22,931 bases of DNA from a virus. Below, piece by piece: positions 3-20,184 of this stretch. How positions within the stretch are numbered: position 1 is the first letter of the stretch; each line of letters begins with the position of its first letter. The position numbers and the translations under genes are program-made. The stretch is taken from IMG/VR virus record IMGVR_UViG_3300006802_000620, positions 1-22,931 of that record. The stretch is one strand, 5' to 3'. The notes beneath the pieces are model-generated. The model was given only the letters and a program-made list of their open reading frames with translations. It was not told the DNA's origin and made no database searches.

Positions 3-1937
3 CCAAAATCGCCTTTTTCTTTCAAAGACAAAAGCGACATCATAAGTAATTATGGGTTTAAGGGCAGGCTTGTACAGGTGAAGAATCCATATAAAGCGGA
101 GGAGATATTAGGCAAGTTCGATCCAAAGACAACTGCTGTGGTATTTATGGTTGGTGCAAAAGATATGCAGGAAGATCCTAGGTTTGCAATGAAACCAAAA
201 AAGGATGGATCAGCGTCATATTTTCAAGCATACGATAAAAATAAATCAAATCTTCAAGGGTTTGATACTCATGGATATTTAGTTGTAGCACCACACGTTC
301 GAATTAATATTCCTGGGTATGGAGAAATGTCTGGCACTAGTTTAAGAAAAGCCTTAGGGGCAAAAATTCCTAGAGCACAGAAAGTAAATTTATTTAAAGC
401 AGTATTTGGTTGGCACGAACCGAAGACAGCAAATATGGTATTTGATAAATTAGAATCGCTTTCTGAATCAAAATTATCAATATCAGAAGTTATGAAATTT
501 AAAAACAAAATACCAATGGAGGTAAAAAAAGAAACACCAACGTTTACTAAACAATGGTGGGCAGAGTCACTTAATTTAAATGAAGAAGTTAACGAAGCTA
601 TTAAATTTAGTGAAGTAAAAAATAAGTTTAAAAAGATCTTAGGAGCTATTAAACAAGAAAGTCGAGAAACAAAAGAAGCTTTTGTATTATTAGCAAAAGC
701 TGCAATGGGTAAAATTGACTTAACTGATTCAGATAAAAAACAAATCGGAGACCAAATGAAAGACTTACTTAAGAGTGTAGGTCTTACTGCAGTAGCTGTT
801 ATGCCAGCTGGCACGATTGTAGCTATTTTGATAAAATTACTAAAAGCTGAAAAATATATCACTCCGTCGGCATTTGCAAATTTAAATTTAAAAGAGTCAT
901 TATTAACTGAAGGCGGAGCTGGAGGTCATATGGCGCATCCGTTTAATGTAGATTGGGTTAAATCAGGTAAAGACTTACTTAAGATATTTGACCAATCCGT
1001 TAAATATTTAGAGAAAGGACCGGCATCAGTTAAGATCGACGGCGTTAATGCTTCTATTCGTTTTGTTGAATTAGACGGAAGAAAACAATTTGTAATGGAC
1101 CGTGGGTCGAATAAACCTTTAGATGTCAAAGGCATCACGAAAGCTGAATTATTAGATAGATTTGGTGAAGGTCATGGAATGATTAAAGTAGGCGGAAAGG
1201 TATTAGACATATTTAATGATGCAATTCCTAAAATTACTCCAGCATTAAAAAAATTAAGATTATGGGATAACCCAAATATCTTATTTAATATTGAATATGT
1301 TGCTGGATCGACAAATGTGCTTTCATATAGTAAAAATTTCTTAGCAGTACACGGATTATTAGAAATTGAACAAGTAACTCCAAAGCGCAGAGGTACTAAA
1401 GAAATTAAGTTTGACGAAACTGCAATGCAAGAATTGTTAAATAATTTAGCACCTTCTGCGAAAAAACAAGGCTACGAAGTATTAGGTTCAGTACCCACGG
1501 AATTAAAAGGTAAACCTAATTTTGGAAGCGTATTAAATCAAAAGTATACTATTAATTACGGCGGCGGAAAGGAAGAAACAAAAACTCTTCTTCAATGGTT
1601 ATCAAACGCAAAAGTACCTGACCAAAATATTAAAACAGTCGACGGCAAAACAATTGCTGCATTATCAAAAGACGTACTAATTAAAATTTCAGATGGTACC
1701 CCATTAAGTGAATATATTGCAGATCCTAAAGATTATCAAGCAGCAATAGATGGGTTTGCAGTTTATATGGCTACAATGAAAATGGGAGATGCTGTACTAG
1801 AAAAATTAGAATCTCCCCTAGGGCCTGTTACAGATCACGAAGGAATCGTAATTCGAGATAAATCAATCTATAAAGAGCCGTTTAAAATTACCGGAAAATT
1901 CATTTTAGGTGGATTAGCGACATCTTTTAGAAAGTAA
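3..1937 (+). CDS. Multidomain nucleotidyltransferase / LETM1-like / ligase-like protein, 5' end outside window
   Basis: The frame is open from base 3, so the gene is partial; the GTG at 78 is unlikely to be the true start. Residues are counted from that GTG. Residues 1 to about 120, plus about 25 codons before, look like the C-terminal half of a small-molecule nucleotidyltransferase (NMNAT/cytidylyltransferase type): FMVGAKD near 23-29 and the SGTSLRKAL motif at 85-93. The N-terminal HxGH motif would lie outside the window. Residues about 180-268 resemble the LETM1-like ribosome-binding segment (MPAGTIVAILIKLL, then PSAF). Residues about 285-619 carry motifs of ATP-grasping ligase/capping-type nucleotidyltransferases: KIDG at 319-322, NIEYV at 404-408, EGIVIR at 588-593 and FKITG at 602-606. 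I recall this C-terminal part as a widespread uncharacterised phage family (perhaps DUF6267). The linker LLTE/GG at 275-280 resembles a gp21 cleavage site. Overall function is unknown; the domain calls are by motif only. Confidence 0.75.
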   Translation, partial: PKSPFSFKDKSDIISNYGFKGRLVQVKNPYKAEEILGKFDPKTTAVVFMVGAKDMQEDPRFAMKPKKDGSASYFQAYDKNKSNLQGFDTHGYLVVAPHVRINIPGYGEMSGTSLRKALGAKIPRAQKVNLFKAVFGWHEPKTANMVFDKLESLSESKLSISEVMKFKNKIPMEVKKETPTFTKQWWAESLNLNEEVNEAIKFSEVKNKFKKILGAIKQESRETKEAFVLLAKAAMGKIDLTDSDKKQIGDQMKDLLKSVGLTAVAVMPAGTIVAILIKLLKAEKYITPSAFANLNLKESLLTEGGAGGHMAHPFNVDWVKSGKDLLKIFDQSVKYLEKGPASVKIDGVNASIRFVELDGRKQFVMDRGSNKPLDVKGITKAELLDRFGEGHGMIKVGGKVLDIFNDAIPKITPALKKLRLWDNPNILFNIEYVAGSTNVLSYSKNFLAVHGLLEIEQVTPKRRGTKEIKFDETAMQELLNNLAPSAKKQGYEVLGSVPTELKGKPNFGSVLNQKYTINYGGGKEETKTLLQWLSNAKVPDQNIKTVDGKTIAALSKDVLIKISDGTPLSEYIADPKDYQAAIDGFAVYMATMKMGDAVLEKLESPLGPVTDHEGIVIRDKSIYKEPFKITGKFILGGLATSFRK

Positions 1938-4185: not shown

Positions 4186-5367
4186 ATGAAACAAAACGAA
4201 GGATATACTCCAGGAAAAGGATGGTCTCAAGACTTTGCATATGAAGATATGTTGCAGGCCGGCATTGACCTTAAAATTACTGATAGCTTAGAGTTAATGG
4301 AAAAAATCGTCGAAGACTTTACCGACGTTAATTACCATAGAGAAGCAGCTCATTTATATGATGCGATTGATGCTATGAAAGAAGGTAAAAAGAACGAGGC
4401 TAAAAAATATTTAAAAGACTTCCAGACTGAATGTCAAAAGACATTAGATATTATTATTCGAGAGTCAGCTTATATGAAAGAAAGATTTACAAAATTAGCA
4501 AATCTTAAAGAAGACGAGACTCAAGACAAATTAGATGATTTGTCAGCTGCGTTCCAAGACAGTTCAGTTGAGGCATATGTTTCATTACTTAAAAAATACC
4601 AATCAGATCCAAAGGTAGCAGCAGTTCTTAGAGCTGGAACGACTGACGGAAAGCCTAGAGATGAAAAGTTTACTGTATCTAAAGCAACTTATTTTGCAAA
4701 AGTTTTAAAGCCCACGCAAAATGAAATTGGAGCTGAAGAGAGTTTAAAAAATATTTGTACTGATCAATATGGTTCTTTAGACGGATTCCTTAAAGGAAAA
4801 GCAAAATTTCCAGAGCCAATTATTATATATAATGCAGAATTTATCTTAGATGGTCACCATCGTTGGTCTCAAGTTTACGCAGCCGAGCCAAATGCGAAAA
4901 TTCCATCAATTAATGTTACTGGTAAATTTGAGCCTAAAGATATTTTAAAAGCTATTCATACTGCAATTGCAGTTGACGCCGGAGCAACTAAAACAATTAA
5001 TGCCAATTTAAAGGCAGGAAATTTATTAGAATTTACTCCAGATAAAACTAAAAAATTCGTAATGGATGAGTTACAAGACAAAGCTCGTAAAGTATGGAAT
5101 GCTAATGGGTATGAATCTGACGAAGCCATTGCTACTAGAATTGCTGAGAATGTAGAAGCTATGATTCAAAACTCTAAACCAGAAAGTTGGGCTCCTGAAA
5201 GAAGTTCAATGCCTCAGCCTGGCGTTAGCGGTTCAGAACAATGGGGAAAGAAAATGGCTGGAGGATCAGTTAACTTGATCGACCCAAAAAGTACTGATGT
5301 GAAAAAAGAATCAGTAAATAAAAAATTAGATAATATGCTTAAAGAGTCTATTATCAAAATTAAATAA
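4186..5367 (+). CDS. ParB/sulfiredoxin-like domain phage protein
   Basis: The product has 393 residues. Residues about 1-110 are helical and acidic. Residues about 165-265 contain a ParB/Srx-like core: AKVLKPTQNEIG at 171-182, then PIIIYNAEFILDGHHRWS at 211-228. The DGHHRW box at 222-227 corresponds to the G-x-x-R box of ParB N-terminal domains, which in various relatives bind CTP, act as nucleases or bind nucleotides. No ParB helix-turn-helix or partner ParA gene is visible, so plasmid-type partition is unlikely. The C-terminal 130 residues hold Pro/Ser-rich linkers (SWAPERSSMPQPG) and a Lys-rich end. A late-promoter-like motif precedes it, and only one base separates its stop from the next start (TAATATG). 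Comparable ParB-like proteins occur in other T4-type phages; their role is not clear to me. Confidence 0.78.
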   Translation: MKQNEGYTPGKGWSQDFAYEDMLQAGIDLKITDSLELMEKIVEDFTDVNYHREAAHLYDAIDAMKEGKKNEAKKYLKDFQTECQKTLDIIIRESAYMKERFTKLANLKEDETQDKLDDLSAAFQDSSVEAYVSLLKKYQSDPKVAAVLRAGTTDGKPRDEKFTVSKATYFAKVLKPTQNEIGAEESLKNICTDQYGSLDGFLKGKAKFPEPIIIYNAEFILDGHHRWSQVYAAEPNAKIPSINVTGKFEPKDILKAIHTAIAVDAGATKTINANLKAGNLLEFTPDKTKKFVMDELQDKARKVWNANGYESDEAIATRIAENVEAMIQNSKPESWAPERSSMPQPGVSGSEQWGKKMAGGSVNLIDPKSTDVKKESVNKKLDNMLKESIIKIK

Positions 5368-5368
5368 T

Positions 5369-5875
5369 ATGATTAAATTAGCAGATTTACTAAAAGAAGC
5401 TGACGGAGAATTTAAATGTCCAGTAGCGACTCAAAACGGTGAAGTAAATATTAAAAACCGACAAGTTGCTATTGACAGATATGGATATGGTCCATTAAAC
5501 CCGAACAATCCAAATATTAAATTTTGGAAAAAGAAAGCTGCTTTATGGAAAATTGAGGATATTGACGAAGTTAAATCTGCCAGATGCAATTCATGTGCCG
5601 CATTTAGTATTACTTCTAGAATGTTGGCCTGTATTGAAAAAGGATTAGTAGGCCCTGCGGGCGGAGTAGATGTGCCTGCTGCATTAGAAGGGGAAGAGCC
5701 AAAAGGTGCAGCAGTTGAAGCTCCAGAATTTGACGATACCGAAGGAGCACAACAAGACGCTTGGGATACTATTGAAGCCGGTAAATTGGGATATTGTACA
5801 ATGCATAAATTTAAGTGTGCTGGCTCAAGAACGTGTAATGCTTGGATCGAAGGCGGTCCTGTTAAAGACAAATAA
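5369..5875 (+). CDS. Cys-rich conserved phage protein with packaging-type N-terminus
   Basis: The product has 168 residues and starts MIKLADLLKEADGEF. The sequence LLKE/A at 7-11 fits the T4 prohead-protease cleavage signature, so the first ten residues may be a removable targeting peptide. The body has seven cysteines (C17, C73, C76, C88, C143, C150 and C156), with CNSC at 73-76 and a KCAGSRTCNAW segment near 149-159. This pattern suggests a bound metal ion or iron-sulfur cluster. The motif YGYGPLNPNNPN at 38-49 and the tail AWIEGGP are ones I recall from a family common in T4-type marine phages, with no known function. The Ala/Glu/Pro-rich stretch at 96-125 looks like a flexible linker. It sits between one-base TAATATG junctions on both sides. 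Confidence 0.78.
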   Translation: MIKLADLLKEADGEFKCPVATQNGEVNIKNRQVAIDRYGYGPLNPNNPNIKFWKKKAALWKIEDIDEVKSARCNSCAAFSITSRMLACIEKGLVGPAGGVDVPAALEGEEPKGAAVEAPEFDDTEGAQQDAWDTIEAGKLGYCTMHKFKCAGSRTCNAWIEGGPVKDK

Positions 5876-11584: not shown

Positions 11585-12187
11585 ATGGAAAACAAGAAAT
11601 TAATAGTAGACTACATTACATTTGACATTTCTCCGGAAATGATTAATGAGTCTATGGAAAAAAATAATGGCCGATTAGTAGTTAAGGGCGTATTGCAGCG
11701 TGCTGAAGCTAAGAATCAAAATGGCCGAGTATATCCTAAAGAAGTATTAATGCGTGAAGCAAAAAAATACAGCGACGTCAATATTAAAGAAAGACGTGCT
11801 TTAGGAGAATTAGACCACCCAGATAGTTCCGTTGTCAATTTAAATAATGTATCTCATAACGTAACTGAAATGCATTGGGATGGCGACGATCTAGTAGGTA
11901 CAGTTGAAATTTTATCAACGCCTTCAGGAAATATCTTAAAAGAATTATTTAAGTGTGGAATTAAATTAGGCATTTCTTCAAGAGGTTTAGGATCCGTAAA
12001 ACAATTAGGAGAAGGATCTGTAGAAGTGCAAGATGACTTTGAGTTAATTGCTTTTGATTTCGTATCTAATCCTTCTACTCATGGAGCTTTTTTAAAGCCA
12101 ATGCATGAATCAGTTAATAGGACTTTAGATATTAACAAATATGATAAAGTAAATAAATTAATTACTGATATTTTAACTGACATTTAA
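11585..12187 (+). CDS. gp21: Prohead core serine protease, gp21-like
   Basis: The 200-residue product matches T4 gp21 in size (212 residues) and key motifs. The catalytic His is H78 in RALGELDHPDSS, and the nucleophile is in GISSRGLGS at 129-137 (S131 or S132). Other herpesvirus/T4-protease-like features are GRVYPKEVLMREAKKY near 48-62, NNVSHNVTEMHWDGD at 87-101, and FDFVSNPSTHGAFL before the C-terminus. In T4 this enzyme sits in the prohead core, activates itself, degrades the scaffold and trims the capsid and internal proteins after L/I-x-E. Possible substrates in this window are the capsid (E60/A61), the scaffold, and several small proteins with LKE or LRE near the N-terminus. One base separates its ATG from the previous stop. 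Confidence 0.93.
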   Translation: MENKKLIVDYITFDISPEMINESMEKNNGRLVVKGVLQRAEAKNQNGRVYPKEVLMREAKKYSDVNIKERRALGELDHPDSSVVNLNNVSHNVTEMHWDGDDLVGTVEILSTPSGNILKELFKCGIKLGISSRGLGSVKQLGEGSVEVQDDFELIAFDFVSNPSTHGAFLKPMHESVNRTLDINKYDKVNKLITDILTDI

Positions 12188-17211: not shown

Positions 17212-17907
17212 ATGGAAGACACTCAACAACAAAGACCAGCCCGTTTGTCAAATAGCGAAAAGCGCAAACCAAAAGGCGCAATTAAATTTAATATACAATT
17301 AAATGAAGAGCAAAAGGCAGCAAAGGCTGAAGTATTAAACAATACTGTTACTCTAATTAAAGGTGCCGCAGGATCTGGAAAAACATTAGTAGCGTGTCAA
17401 ATTGCATTAGATATGTTTTTTACCCGCCAAATTGAAAAAATTATTATTACGAGACCAAATGTCGCGTCAGCTGACGAAATTGGGTTCTTACCAGGATCAA
17501 TGAAAGAAAAAATGGATCCATGGCTAGCCCCAATTTATGCTAATTTATATATGTTATATAATAAGCAGACAATCGATAAGATGGTTGATAACCAAGAGAT
17601 CGAGATTCTTCCGTTCGCATTTGTACGGGGTAGGACGTTTGTGGATTCGGTGGTTATTGTGGATGAAGCTCAAAACGTAAATAATAATCAAACAGAGATG
17701 ATTGTTGGTCGATTAGGGCTTAATTCAAAAATGATTTTTTGTGGAGATATTGCACAAATTGATCTTAAAAACAAAAAAGAGTCGGGAGTTGACTTTTTTA
17801 AAATTTTAGAATCGCGCGTCAATGGAGTTAAGGTTATAACATTATTAAATAATCATAGGCATCCTATCGTGCCAGAAATTTTAACCGTATATACAGAGTA
17901 TAAATAA
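17212..17907 (+). CDS. phoH: PhoH-like P-loop ATPase
   Basis: The 231-residue product has the full PhoH core: Walker A GAAGSGKT at 51-58, the ITRPNVASADEIGFLPGSMK segment at 79-98, PFAFVRGRTF at 134-143, Walker B VVIVDEAQN at 147-155, and IFCGDIAQIDL further on. PhoH proteins are superfamily 1 helicase-like ATPases found in many bacteria and in a large share of marine T4-type phages; their substrate in phages is unsettled, with RNA metabolism the usual suggestion. The first 25 residues (TQQQRPARLSNSEKRKPKG) are basic and disordered. The gene follows the capsid terminator and overlaps the next gene by one base (TAATG), which suggests the two enzymes work together. Confidence 0.93.
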   Translation: MEDTQQQRPARLSNSEKRKPKGAIKFNIQLNEEQKAAKAEVLNNTVTLIKGAAGSGKTLVACQIALDMFFTRQIEKIIITRPNVASADEIGFLPGSMKEKMDPWLAPIYANLYMLYNKQTIDKMVDNQEIEILPFAFVRGRTFVDSVVIVDEAQNVNNNQTEMIVGRLGLNSKMIFCGDIAQIDLKNKKESGVDFFKILESRVNGVKVITLLNNHRHPIVPEILTVYTEYK

Positions 17908-18539
17908 TGGATATATTAGATAACTATTTTGGTGAAGAAATGCAAAAATATTTGCCGAAGTTTGAGCAACATAAAGTGTATTCAGACCCAAAAGCGTTTG
18001 CATTTAATTCTATAAATGAAGCCAAAACAAAAAAATTAAGAATTTTTGATTTTGACGACACATTAGCCAAGGTTAAGGCAAATATTATTGTACATAACAA
18101 AGACAAAGAGTTTACCTTAACCCCAGCAGAATTTGCAGTATATGAGCCAAAGCCCGGCGATACATTTAATTTTAAAGAATTTGACGCTATTGTAAAAACT
18201 GCTGCACCAATTAAAAAGAATATTGAATTGTTAAAAAAAGCTGCTAGCGATTCTAATACAAAGACTACGATATTAACCGCTCGTTTATTAGGATATCCAG
18301 TTAAGCGGTATTTAAAAAAGAATTTTAATTTAGATATATATGTAGTTGCGTTAGGCGATGCAAATCCTATTAAAAAATCAAATTATATCGAAAAAGAAAT
18401 TAAAAAAGGATATTCAGATATTGTCTTTATTGACGATTCTATTAAAAATGTAAAAGCAGTTTCGGAATTAACTAAAAAATACCCTGATATTAAATTAGAG
18501 GTAATACATACGACAGACGCGGAACATATAAAATTTTAA
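17907..18539 (+). CDS. HAD-superfamily phosphatase
   Basis: The product has 210 residues. HAD motifs are clear: motif I FDFDDTLA with nucleophile D48 and acid/base D50, motif II in TTILTAR with T124, a candidate motif III Lys at 156-157 (NPIKKSNY), and motif IV VFIDDS with D176/D177. The small insertion between motifs I and II (residues 60-100) would form the cap. The first 40 residues (DNYFGEEMQKYLPKFEQH) are an extra helical leader. The substrate is unknown; the fold is shared with the phosphatase half of T4 polynucleotide kinase, so a nucleic-acid end or a nucleotide is possible. It overlaps the PhoH-like gene by one base, and a five-base gap leads to the endolysin gene. Confidence 0.88.
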   Translation: MDILDNYFGEEMQKYLPKFEQHKVYSDPKAFAFNSINEAKTKKLRIFDFDDTLAKVKANIIVHNKDKEFTLTPAEFAVYEPKPGDTFNFKEFDAIVKTAAPIKKNIELLKKAASDSNTKTTILTARLLGYPVKRYLKKNFNLDIYVVALGDANPIKKSNYIEKEIKKGYSDIVFIDDSIKNVKAVSELTKKYPDIKLEVIHTTDAEHIKF

Positions 18540-18544
18540 AAATT

Positions 18545-19363
18545 ATGCTACTTAAAAATGGATCAAGCGGAGATGATGTAAAAAAGCTCCAAGAAAAATT
18601 GGGATTAGTTGCTGACGGCGATTTTGGACCAAAAACTGAGGCCGCTGTAAAAGCTTGGCAAACTGCAAACGGGTTAACAGCCGACGGCATTGTTGGTAAT
18701 AGCACTTGGGGAAAGATGTTTAGTAATGAGCCATCGACTATTTCAATACCTACTTCAGAATTTAAATTAGATGCTTTAAAAGGCCATGTACCTGATGCGG
18801 TAATTGCACAAATTCCAGATACGGCAGCTAAATTTAATATTACAAATACTTTAAGATTAGCACATTTTCTAGCACAATGTGCTCATGAATCGGGAAAGTT
18901 TAAAGCGGTAAGTGAAAACTTAAATTACTCAGCAGATGGTCTTAATAAAGTGTTTCCTAAGTATTTTAAAAATGCTGGGAGAAATGCAGCTGACTATGCT
19001 CGCAACCCAGAAAAGATTGCTAATGTAGTATACGCTAATAGAATGTCTAATGGCGATACAGCTTCAGGCGATGGATGGAAATTTAGAGGCCGTGGATATA
19101 TCCAATTGACAGGACGGGCTAATTATGCTAAATTTGATAAAATGGTAGACGATGATATTTTAGGTAATCCTGATTTGGTGGCTACCAAATACCCATTAAT
19201 GTCAGCCGCATTTTTCTTTAACTCAAATAACCTTTGGGCTATCTGTGATAAAGGAGCTGACGATGCTACAACGGCAATGGTAACAAAGCGAGTAAATGGC
19301 GGAACTTTAGGATTGCCAGACCGAATTAAGCATTTTAAAGAATTTTATAATTTATTAAAATAA
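18545..19363 (+). CDS. Endolysin: peptidoglycan-binding domain plus GH19 lysozyme domain
   Basis: The product has 272 residues. Residues about 1-58 are a peptidoglycan-binding domain type 1 (LKNGSSGDDVKKLQEKLG, DGDFGPKTEAAVKAWQ, then ADGIVGNSTW). Residues about 75-272 are a glycoside hydrolase family 19 (chitinase-like lysozyme) domain. Its likely catalytic Glu residues are E115 in AHESG and E124 in SENLNYSA; it also has FPKYF, the block ARNPEKIANVVYANRMSNGD, and the GRGYIQLTG motif at 182-190. It should cut the glycan strands of peptidoglycan at lysis, or locally at entry if carried in the virion. No signal peptide is visible, so release would need a holin; none is assigned with confidence. 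The stop overlaps the following start (TAATG). Confidence 0.92.
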   Translation: MLLKNGSSGDDVKKLQEKLGLVADGDFGPKTEAAVKAWQTANGLTADGIVGNSTWGKMFSNEPSTISIPTSEFKLDALKGHVPDAVIAQIPDTAAKFNITNTLRLAHFLAQCAHESGKFKAVSENLNYSADGLNKVFPKYFKNAGRNAADYARNPEKIANVVYANRMSNGDTASGDGWKFRGRGYIQLTGRANYAKFDKMVDDDILGNPDLVATKYPLMSAAFFFNSNNLWAICDKGADDATTAMVTKRVNGGTLGLPDRIKHFKEFYNLLK

Positions 19364-20184
19364 TGATTAAGTTAACGGACCTTTTATCTGAGTTAAAATC
19401 ACTTCGTGGTATTGATGAAATTGATACTACTAAACCATATACGTTAATATGGAACAATGGAGATTTAATGGCAATGTCTCCTAACTCTCAAATGATGCCT
19501 TCATTAGCAAAGAATTTTCCTTTGCGTATTAATCCCGATGAAAAGCTTGTCGAGTTAGTTGACTATGATGATTGGTCTAGTTTTAAGGATATACTTAAAA
19601 TGCAACAAGCGGTCAAAGACACCTTAAGGGCTAAGTTAATTGATATGTCTTGGAAAGTTAATATTCCAATGACAGATTCTAAAAAGAATATTGGATCACT
19701 TAAAATGTCTGATTTTCTTAATTATAATGCTACATTTTCAAATAAGATACCAAAAGCTTTTCATGGCACGACAGATAAAGATTTAGAGTCTATACAGCAA
19801 TTGGGAATTGTACCTCCGTCAAAAACAGACAGAGAAACTTTAAAATGGACTCAATTTTATGGAGAAGATTCTGAAAATAGAACATATTGGTCAATTGATT
19901 TTGACAGGGCCGCATATTATGCAAAGAACGCAGTAGCGATGTACAAAAGGCTGGGCATTAAAGCAAAGCCTATTGTTATTGAAATAAATAATTGGCCAAT
20001 GTCACAAAATGTAGTGGCTGATGACGACTTTCAATCAAATATGAGTATGGTTCAAATGTTAGCTGCACTGCAGCATGGAGGAGTTGATAAAGACTCGCCA
20101 ATTCAGTCAATTAGAATGACTTCGCAATTTGCAATCAAAGGCAGGGTTCCGGCTTCAAAAATTGTTAAAATTCATAAAGTATAA
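19363..20184 (+). CDS. ADP-ribosyltransferase-like protein with packaging-type N-terminus
   Basis: The product has 273 residues. The start MIKLTDLLSELKSL repeats the pattern of the Cys-rich protein at 5369 (MIKLADLLKEA), with a possible protease site after LLSE. Residues about 130-270 have the layout of H-Y-type ADP-ribosyl/RNA-phosphotransferase folds: KAFHGTTDKDLESIQQLGIV at 131-150 with candidate H134, TYWSIDFDRAAYYAKNAV at 174-191 with Y175, PIVIEIN at 203-209, and the closing IKGRVPASKIVKIHKV. Residues 15-125 are an unassigned N-terminal region. T4 packages the ADP-ribosyltransferase Alt in its head and injects it to modify host RNA polymerase, so an injected effector is a reasonable hypothesis. 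The acceptor and activity are unknown. The gene overlaps the endolysin gene by one base. Confidence 0.7.
   Translation: MIKLTDLLSELKSLRGIDEIDTTKPYTLIWNNGDLMAMSPNSQMMPSLAKNFPLRINPDEKLVELVDYDDWSSFKDILKMQQAVKDTLRAKLIDMSWKVNIPMTDSKKNIGSLKMSDFLNYNATFSNKIPKAFHGTTDKDLESIQQLGIVPPSKTDRETLKWTQFYGEDSENRTYWSIDFDRAAYYAKNAVAMYKRLGIKAKPIVIEINNWPMSQNVVADDDFQSNMSMVQMLAALQHGGVDKDSPIQSIRMTSQFAIKGRVPASKIVKIHKV

What the first reader, a model, noticed from the sequence alone, without database searches (positions are those of the whole stretch)
3..1937. Fusion of nucleotidyltransferase, LETM1-like segment and ligase-like domain
One reading frame joins the C-terminal half of an NMNAT-type nucleotidyltransferase (SGTSLRKAL), a LETM1-like ribosome-binding segment, and a C-terminal domain with KxDG, EGIVIR and FKITG motifs in the order expected for ATP/NAD-dependent ligases or capping enzymes. 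A nucleotide-making domain joined to a nucleotide-using one suggests a self-contained NAD/RNA-end or cofactor reaction carried by the phage. Motif order is visible in the sequence; the activity is inference.
Basis: partly seen in the sequence, partly recalled or inferred. Interest (0 to 1): 0.68.

Follow-up and report, generated by a model that had tools for sequence, protein, structure and literature searches.

The report
Cleavable multi-enzyme protein of T4-like phages

Summary
ORF 3-1937 (644 aa, 5'-truncated; about 46 residues missing) joins a HIGH-type nucleotidyltransferase (NT), a LETM1-like segment and an RNA-ligase-like domain. A model of the ligase-like domain (pLDDT 86.6) best matches T4 RNA ligase 1 and other covalent nucleotidyltransferases, weakly; its KxDG lysine is invariant. 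The reading as a self-contained NAD-to-ligase reaction is not supported. In about 190 relatives the LETM1 piece is one of many exchangeable modules: P-loop kinase, HAD phosphatase, CCA-enzyme piece, DUF192, anti-Thoeris Tad3. The ligase-like domain also occurs alone. Its start is preceded by [LIV]xE|GG in 32 of 35 non-redundant cases, fused or free-standing. L/I-x-E is the cleavage motif of T4 prohead protease gp21, and a gp21-type protease is encoded in the window. Internal NT modules nearly always carry the same mark. An NT of the same PHROG, bearing a T4-like capsid-targeting peptide, was found by mass spectrometry in virions of cyanophage S-SZBM1. Best reading: a polyvalent, head-packaged polyprotein cut by the prohead protease and delivering end-repair, nucleotide and counter-defence enzymes. 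Cleavage, packaging and enzymatic activity are inferred, not shown.

The parts
3..1937 (+). Open frame, 644 aa, 5'-truncated by the contig end; fusion NT - LETM1-like - ligase-like
3..452 (+). C-terminal three quarters of a HIGH-superfamily nucleotidyltransferase (SGTSLRKAL at 330-356); first ~46 residues lie off the contig
453..596 (+). Linker with four [LIV]xE sites (after residues 155, 162, 194, 198) and the FTKQWW motif (543-560); candidate internal capsid-targeting/cleavage region
597..887 (+). LETM1-like segment (matches C-terminal ~75 positions of NCBIfam LETM1_rel_film); exchangeable module
888..917 (+). Junction NLKE|SLLTE|GG: [LIV]xE sites after residues 298 and 303, directly before the ligase-like domain; very low confidence (probably flexible) in the model
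912..1934 (+). RNA-ligase-like covalent nucleotidyltransferase domain: KIDG 1032-1043, NIEYVAG 1287-1307, EGIVIR 1839-1856, FKITG 1881-1895
11585..12187 (+). Head maturation (prohead) protease, T4 gp21 type: the proposed processing enzyme
   Evidence: phrog_207, 9.5e-57; in 11 of 12 contigs checked that carry the domain
17907..18539 (+). Free-standing HAD phosphatase (phrog_415, polynucleotide kinase family), homologous to the HAD module fused into the L112/L032 polyproteins; FNSINE|A precedes the domain

Best explanation
The protein is a polyvalent, probably head-packaged polyprotein of a T4-like phage. It is made with the head proteins and carried into the prohead by capsid-targeting-like peptides; here these would be internal, e.g. 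FTKQWWAESLNLNE and LNLKESLLTE. The gp21-type prohead protease then cuts after [L/I/V]-x-E in the linkers, releasing the NT, the LETM1-like piece and the ligase-like enzyme, which are ejected with the DNA. In the new host the ligase-like domain uses its KIDG lysine to carry AMP and seal or modify RNA ends. In relatives it travels with a P-loop kinase, a HAD phosphatase or a CCA-enzyme piece, so repair of host-cleaved tRNA at the start of infection is the most likely role; the NT supplies or repairs a nucleotide cofactor. Shown here: modular fusion and module exchange; invariant ligase motifs; the [LIV]xE mark at module boundaries; co-encoded protease. Shown by others: virion presence of an NT of the same PHROG family in S-SZBM1. 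Inferred: packaging and cleavage of this protein, its enzymatic activity and its substrates.
For: Domain shuffling: about 30 architectures end in the same domain; kinase and YTDENP modules occur in both orders. Boundary mark: P3 [LIV] 35/35, P1 E 32/35, nothing conserved upstream of P4. Exact-end [LIV]xE 31/34 against 0.86 expected on shuffling; linker density 0.059 per residue against 0.009 (ligase) and 0.006 (NT); in the window 6 of 9 sites fall in the two linkers, matched by 5 in 100,000 shuffles. Free-standing ligase-like ORFs begin MISFKQFVLE|GG, MNLIKILLSE|GG. Internal NT modules are preceded by the same mark in all but a few cases, and N-terminal forms read MNLGNWLAKQILTE|DT. T4 gp21 motif is L/I-X-E and a 10-residue CTS suffices for packaging (PMC9026906). 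Protease in the window and in 11/12 contigs checked. S-SZBM1_140 (phrog_395, like the window clade) begins MRFRQFIIE|A and is in the virion proteome (PMC9146016). Ligase-like fold: top PDB hits T4 Rnl1, RNA editing ligase, other RNA/DNA ligases and capping enzymes. Repair modules: AAA_33/zeta-type kinase and PolyA_pol_RNAbd, HAD. Counter-defence: Tad3 in L111, 2.6e-30.
Against: No mass spectrometry of any fused form. Window-clade relatives with a complete 5' end start directly with the NT (MIKNIIAIYPGRF), with no N-terminal targeting peptide. L-x-E is short and linkers are Glu-rich; relatedness inflates the counts. Three of 35 junctions have M or C instead of E. Foldseek scores are weak (E 0.012, TM about 0.2) and profile comparison with Rnl1 is not significant. 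The second motif V lysine of Rnl1 is Thr in all 187 resolvable members. The cyanophage ligase-like homologue (SSZBM1_141) has no targeting peptide and no mention of it was found in the S-SZBM1 paper's main text or table.
Confidence: 0.55

Rival explanations
1. The fusion is an ordinary uncut bifunctional enzyme made in the infected cell (NT plus RNA ligase), and the [LIV]xE stretches are merely flexible Glu-rich linkers.
For: Window clade has no N-terminal targeting peptide; cyanophage T4-GC71 ligase-like genes sit with replication genes and lack one; the NT+ligase pairing recurs in both fusion orders.
Against: Exact placement of [LIV]xE at module starts in both fused and free-standing forms; genes lie beside terminase and head genes; middle modules are exchanged freely.
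Confidence: 0.25
2. One reading: a self-contained NAD/RNA-end reaction in which the NT makes NAD (or another dinucleotide) that the ligase-like domain uses.
For: NT resembles NMNAT/PPAT enzymes; NT and ligase-like domains co-occur in S-PM2 and as neighbours in many cyanophages; NMNAT-like proteins occur in cyanophage virions (PMC9602691, PMC10665884).
Against: Free-standing ligase-like forms exist; NT can be another subfamily (L025, L032); HxGH first His is replaced in most; no NAD-ligase Ia domain seen in the ~350-aa domain (sequence inspection).
Confidence: 0.1
3. The C-terminal domain is a catalytically changed covalent-NTase fold with a structural or assembly role (as T4 Rnl1 also promotes tail-fibre attachment), not a ligase.
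For: Second motif V Lys replaced by Thr throughout; weak fold scores; T4 rnlA is annotated as tail fibre attachment catalyst.
Against: The other nucleotide-binding motifs are invariant; company of repair-type modules.
Confidence: 0.2

Closest known systems
Polyvalent proteins of phages and conjugative elements (Iyer et al. 2017, PMC5512222)
   Same: Large proteins of unrelated enzymatic domains, predicted to be injected with DNA; some processed by proteases; ParB-like, Pol-beta, peptidase modules
   Different: In the passages read: processing mostly by embedded zincin peptidases, LETM1 not mentioned, RNA ligase mentioned only as not associated with their 2H domains. Here a trans-acting gp21-type protease and [LIV]xE sites at module starts are proposed, with HIGH NT + RNA-ligase-like as the core
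T4 internal proteins IPI-III and Alt (capsid-targeting sequence, gp21 cleavage)
   Same: Short N-terminal peptide ending in [LI]xE before free-standing modules; head-gene location; gp21-type protease
   Different: T4 proteins are single cargoes with terminal peptides; here several cargoes are fused and the peptides are internal
T4 RNA ligase 1 (Rnl1) and the ATP-type RNA ligase / capping-enzyme superfamily
   Same: KxDG, motif III acidic strand (NIEYVAG vs NMEYVAP), EGxVxR, motif V Lys; Rnl1 is the best Foldseek hit
   Different: No significant sequence match; second motif V Lys is Thr; different C-terminal half; conserved GG(A)xGHMxHPF N-terminus
Cyanophage T4-GC71 / PHROG 455 plus cytidyltransferase (PHROG 395)
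   Same: Ligase-like domain and HIGH NT paired, fused in S-PM2 in the order LIG-NT
   Different: Usually separate genes, opposite order, ligase-like gene without a targeting peptide; homology to the window domain rests on Foldseek and motif order, profile comparison not significant
Microcystis phage Mel-JY01 WWT39297
   Same: Isolate with the same NT-ligase-like fusion and I-A-E|GG junction
   Different: No LETM1 module; belongs to the sister subfamily; has an N-terminal LLSE/IFSE peptide

Membership tests
ATP-type RNA ligase / covalent nucleotidyltransferase superfamily | KxDG motif I lysine conserved | tested here: met
   KIDG 111/111 resolvable, K[LT]DG 81/81
ATP-type RNA ligase / covalent nucleotidyltransferase superfamily | Motifs III, IV (EGxVxR) in order | tested here: met
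   invariants E138, E320, G321, R325
ATP-type RNA ligase / covalent nucleotidyltransferase superfamily | Motif V with two lysines (KxK), as K240/K242 in Rnl1 | tested here: not met
   K[IL]TG or K[FL]TG in all 187 resolvable members; Rnl1 set has K240, K242
ATP-type RNA ligase / covalent nucleotidyltransferase superfamily | Same fold | tested here: inconclusive
   Rnl1 and other ligases rank first but E 0.012, TM ~0.2; sister model gives Rnl1 first at E 0.21
ATP-type RNA ligase / covalent nucleotidyltransferase superfamily | Lysine adenylylation and end joining | not testable with these tools
   bench assay needed
NMNAT (HIGH-superfamily adenylyltransferase) | HIGH nucleotidyltransferase fold/family | tested here: met
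   Pfam PF01467 above cut-off in L002, L009, L035; PDB profile hits
NMNAT (HIGH-superfamily adenylyltransferase) | [H/T]xGH motif | tested here: not met
   GxHH-type in 24/30 representatives; window's own copy is off the contig, so judged from close relatives
NMNAT (HIGH-superfamily adenylyltransferase) | NMN specificity | not testable with these tools
   PPAT and NMNAT score alike
LETM1 family | Match to LETM1 models | tested here: inconclusive
   NCBIfam LETM1_rel_film 7/7, C-terminal part only, below its full-length cut-off; no Pfam LETM1
LETM1 family | Ribosome binding / membrane helix | not tested
   -
Polyvalent (injected multidomain) proteins | Several domains of disparate activity, variable architecture | tested here: met
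Polyvalent (injected multidomain) proteins | Present in virion / injected | not testable with these tools
   only a same-PHROG NT is reported in virions (PMC9146016)
T4 internal proteins (CTS class) | N-terminal capsid-targeting peptide ending in [LI]xE | tested here: inconclusive
   Present in free-standing ligase forms, L024/L030-like and marine forms; absent at the N-terminus of the window clade
T4 internal proteins (CTS class) | Cleavage by gp21-type protease | not testable with these tools
   protease and sites present; cleavage not shown

The most novel reading that the evidence does not exclude
T4-like phages use their prohead protease as a viral polyprotein processor: a single late gene encodes a string of exchangeable enzymes, each behind its own capsid-targeting/cleavage peptide, packaged as one chain and cut inside the head into an RNA-repair and counter-defence kit that is injected ready-made.
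Probability: 0.45. Interest if true: 0.82.

Novelty: new variant of a known kind. Interest (0 to 1): 0.64.

Why it matters
If true, a short [LIV]xE mark next to a gp21-type protease could be used to read injected cargo proteins off uncultured T4-like phages, and unknown modules in the same position (DUF192, DUF5661, LETM1-like, GNAT-like) become candidate host-takeover or counter-defence proteins, as Tad3 in one of them suggests. It would also mean phages deliver an RNA-ligase-like enzyme with the DNA, so host-cleaved tRNA could be repaired before phage genes are expressed.

Tried and rejected
Pfam, PHROG and PDB sequence searches with the window protein: no hits, uninformative alone. Profile comparison of the ligase-like family with T4 Rnl1 and with the cyanophage T4-GC71 family: motif registers agree but not significant. 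Second model from the sister family: pLDDT 72, Rnl1 still top but E 0.21. Looked for a canonical RNA ligase in ten large contigs: only G004 above cut-off, so this domain is not simply a duplicate of one, but fragments limit this. Rejected: chimeric assembly (many independent contigs); NAD-dependent DNA ligase (no Ia-type domain seen); SSZBM1_139, seen in virions next to the cytidylyltransferase, as the ligase-like protein (it is not, the ligase-like gene is _141). FTKxWW as a motif shared with other packaged proteins: found only in this fusion among the loci held. Cellular origin: genome-contig scan gave only two weak or short relatives.

Full report
WHAT IS THERE. The window is a complete IMG/VR record of 22,931 bases, a fragment, from the head region of a T4-like phage: terminase, portal, head maturation protease, major head protein, PhoH. 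ORF 3-1937 runs in from the contig start. Relatives with complete 5' ends show that about 46 residues are missing, including IAIYPGRFQPFGKHH. The frame holds three modules. First, a HIGH-superfamily nucleotidyltransferase (NT): PF01467 above its cut-off in L002, L009 and L035, phrog_395, nearest solved structures PPAT 3do8 and NMNATs 2qjt and 1f9a. Second, a ~100-residue LETM1-like segment that matches only the C-terminal part of NCBIfam LETM1_rel_film (7 of 7 members, best 7.5e-11), not Pfam LETM1. Third, a ~340-residue C-terminal domain without a Pfam or PHROG match in the window protein.

THE C-TERMINAL DOMAIN. An AlphaFold2 model built on 22 relatives has pLDDT 86.6 and pTM 0.82. Foldseek against PDB ranks T4 RNA ligase 1 first, followed by archaeal, Naegleria and trypanosome RNA ligases, a viral DNA ligase and capping enzymes. 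E-values (0.012 and up) and TM-scores (about 0.2) are weak, but the ranking is strikingly uniform. In BFVD, close relatives are phage 'cytidyltransferase-like' fusions, then DNA and RNA ligases. KIDG, the motif III strand NIEYVAG, EGIVIR and one motif V lysine are conserved; the lysine is KIDG in 111/111 resolvable members and K[LT]DG in 81/81 of a sister family. The sister family was found through Microcystis phage Mel-JY01 and is homologous (HHalign probability 97.9, E 3.5e-13). One superfamily feature fails: the second motif V lysine of Rnl1 is Thr in all 187 resolvable members. So 'works like a ligase' is plausible, 'is an active RNA ligase' is untested. Residues 1-15 of the model, which contain the LLTE|GG junction, are of very low confidence, as expected for a flexible junction.

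THE FUSION IS MODULAR. Across about 190 ORFs ending in this domain there are about 30 architectures (truncated contigs included). The LETM1 segment is present in a minority. Elsewhere in the same place, or further upstream, are: a P-loop kinase (AAA_33/zeta); a HAD phosphatase homologous to the free-standing HAD protein of this window (43% identity); a PolyA_pol_RNAbd piece typical of CCA-adding enzymes; DUF192; DUF5661; and Tad3, a type I Thoeris inhibitor. Kinase and 'YTDENP' modules occur in both orders. The NT itself can be replaced by another HIGH-type enzyme (L025, L032), and in L035/L037 NT and ligase-like domain are separate ORFs in reverse order. The domain also occurs as a free-standing ORF.

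A CLEAVAGE-TYPE MARK AT MODULE STARTS. In 35 representatives (80% identity) the residues just before the ligase-like domain read P4 L (26/35), P3 L/I/V (35/35), P1 E (32/35), then GG; nothing further upstream is conserved. Free-standing forms begin MISFKQFVLE|GG or MNLIKILLSE|GG. The T4 prohead protease gp21 cuts after L/I-X-E, and the first 10 residues of T4 IPIII suffice to direct proteins into the head (PMC9026906). Internal NT modules carry the same mark a few residues before their first strand in all but a few cases, and N-terminal forms read MNLGNWLAKQILTE|DT or MSLSNWLVEQIVTE|. Site density in the 30 residues before the ligase-like domain is 0.059 per residue, against 0.009 in the ligase core and 0.006 in the NT core. 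Shuffling the linkers gives 25 +/- 4 sites against 60 observed, and 0.9 exact-end sites against 31. In the window, 6 of 9 sites fall in the two linkers, none in the NT or LETM1 modules; a fraction of 5e-5 of 20,000 shuffles does as well. Relatedness makes the family counts non-independent. A gp21-type protease is in the window and in 11 of 12 contigs checked. The window's major head protein carries LVSE|A where T4 gp23 is cut, inferred by position (T4 site from memory).

LINK TO EXPERIMENT. The ligase-like/NT pairing is widespread in cyanomyoviruses: fused as LIG-NT in S-PM2, adjacent genes in most others, with 522 INPHARED records matching the S-PM2 protein over one or both parts; PHROG 455 matches the ligase-like part of these proteins. 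Their kinship with the window's ligase-like domain rests on Foldseek (S-PM2 E 7e-4, metaG-MbCM1 E 5.5e-6) and motif order; profile comparison was not significant. Published virion proteomics of S-SZBM1 lists its cytidylyltransferase SSZBM1_140 (2 peptides, 13.5% coverage; PMC9146016). This protein belongs to phrog_395 as do window-clade NTs and begins MRFRQFIIE|A, much like the T4 capsid-targeting peptide (from memory MKTYQEFIAE|A). NMNAT/cytidylyltransferase-like proteins were also reported in virions of S-SCSM1, S-CBWM1 and S-CREM2 (PMC9602691, PMC10665884). These link the NT family, not the ligase-like domain, to virions.

MECHANISM. Most likely: made late, drawn into the prohead, cut by the prohead protease into separate enzymes, ejected with the DNA. 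The ligase-like part, in the company of kinase, phosphatase and CCA modules in relatives, points to RNA (tRNA) end repair at the start of infection. Main weakness: complete relatives of the window's own clade start directly with the NT, so targeting would have to depend on an internal peptide such as FTKxWWxESLxLxE.

COMPARISON. It fits the class of polyvalent proteins (PMC5512222), which were described with embedded zincin peptidases as the main processing enzymes; LETM1 does not occur in that text and RNA ligase only in the 2H discussion and references. It shares the targeting and protease logic of T4 internal proteins, which act in counter-defence (PMC12373910). I therefore rate it a new variant of a known kind.

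Noticed in passing
L111:3738-6023: The same kind of fusion carries Tad3 (type I Thoeris inhibitor, 2.6e-30) and DUF5661 between NT and ligase-like domain: counter-defence cargo in a probable injected protein.
   Followed up: partly
L187:1-4239: Polyprotein whose truncated N-end is the RNA-binding part of a CCA-adding enzyme (PolyA_pol_RNAbd, 5.9e-7), suggesting tRNA repair.
   Followed up: partly
L063:3528-6050, L038, L065: HNH-endonuclease-like insert (by eye) inside the linker; in L063 and L038 the junction reads LLMC|GG instead of LLxE|GG.
   Followed up: no
L155, L198 and related marine loci: Junction LLLM|GG: P1 Glu replaced by Met, in one sub-group; meaning unknown.
   Followed up: no
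window 19363-20184: 273-aa protein starting MIKLTDLLSE, a capsid-targeting-like peptide; no family found; HGT...-type motif recalls ADP-ribosyl or phosphotransferases (by eye only).
   Followed up: no
window 5369-5875: 168-aa Cys-containing protein starting MIKLADLLKE|A, another candidate packaged protein.
   Followed up: no
window 4186-5367: ParB-like/DGHHR-type domain protein (weak Pfam 0.09; phrog_2859 2e-7) in the head region.
   Followed up: no
L040:4201-6795: 865-aa fusion with NT, 'YTDENP' module, LETM1-like segment and a HEMIHHKQ peptidase-like end, without the ligase-like domain.
   Followed up: no
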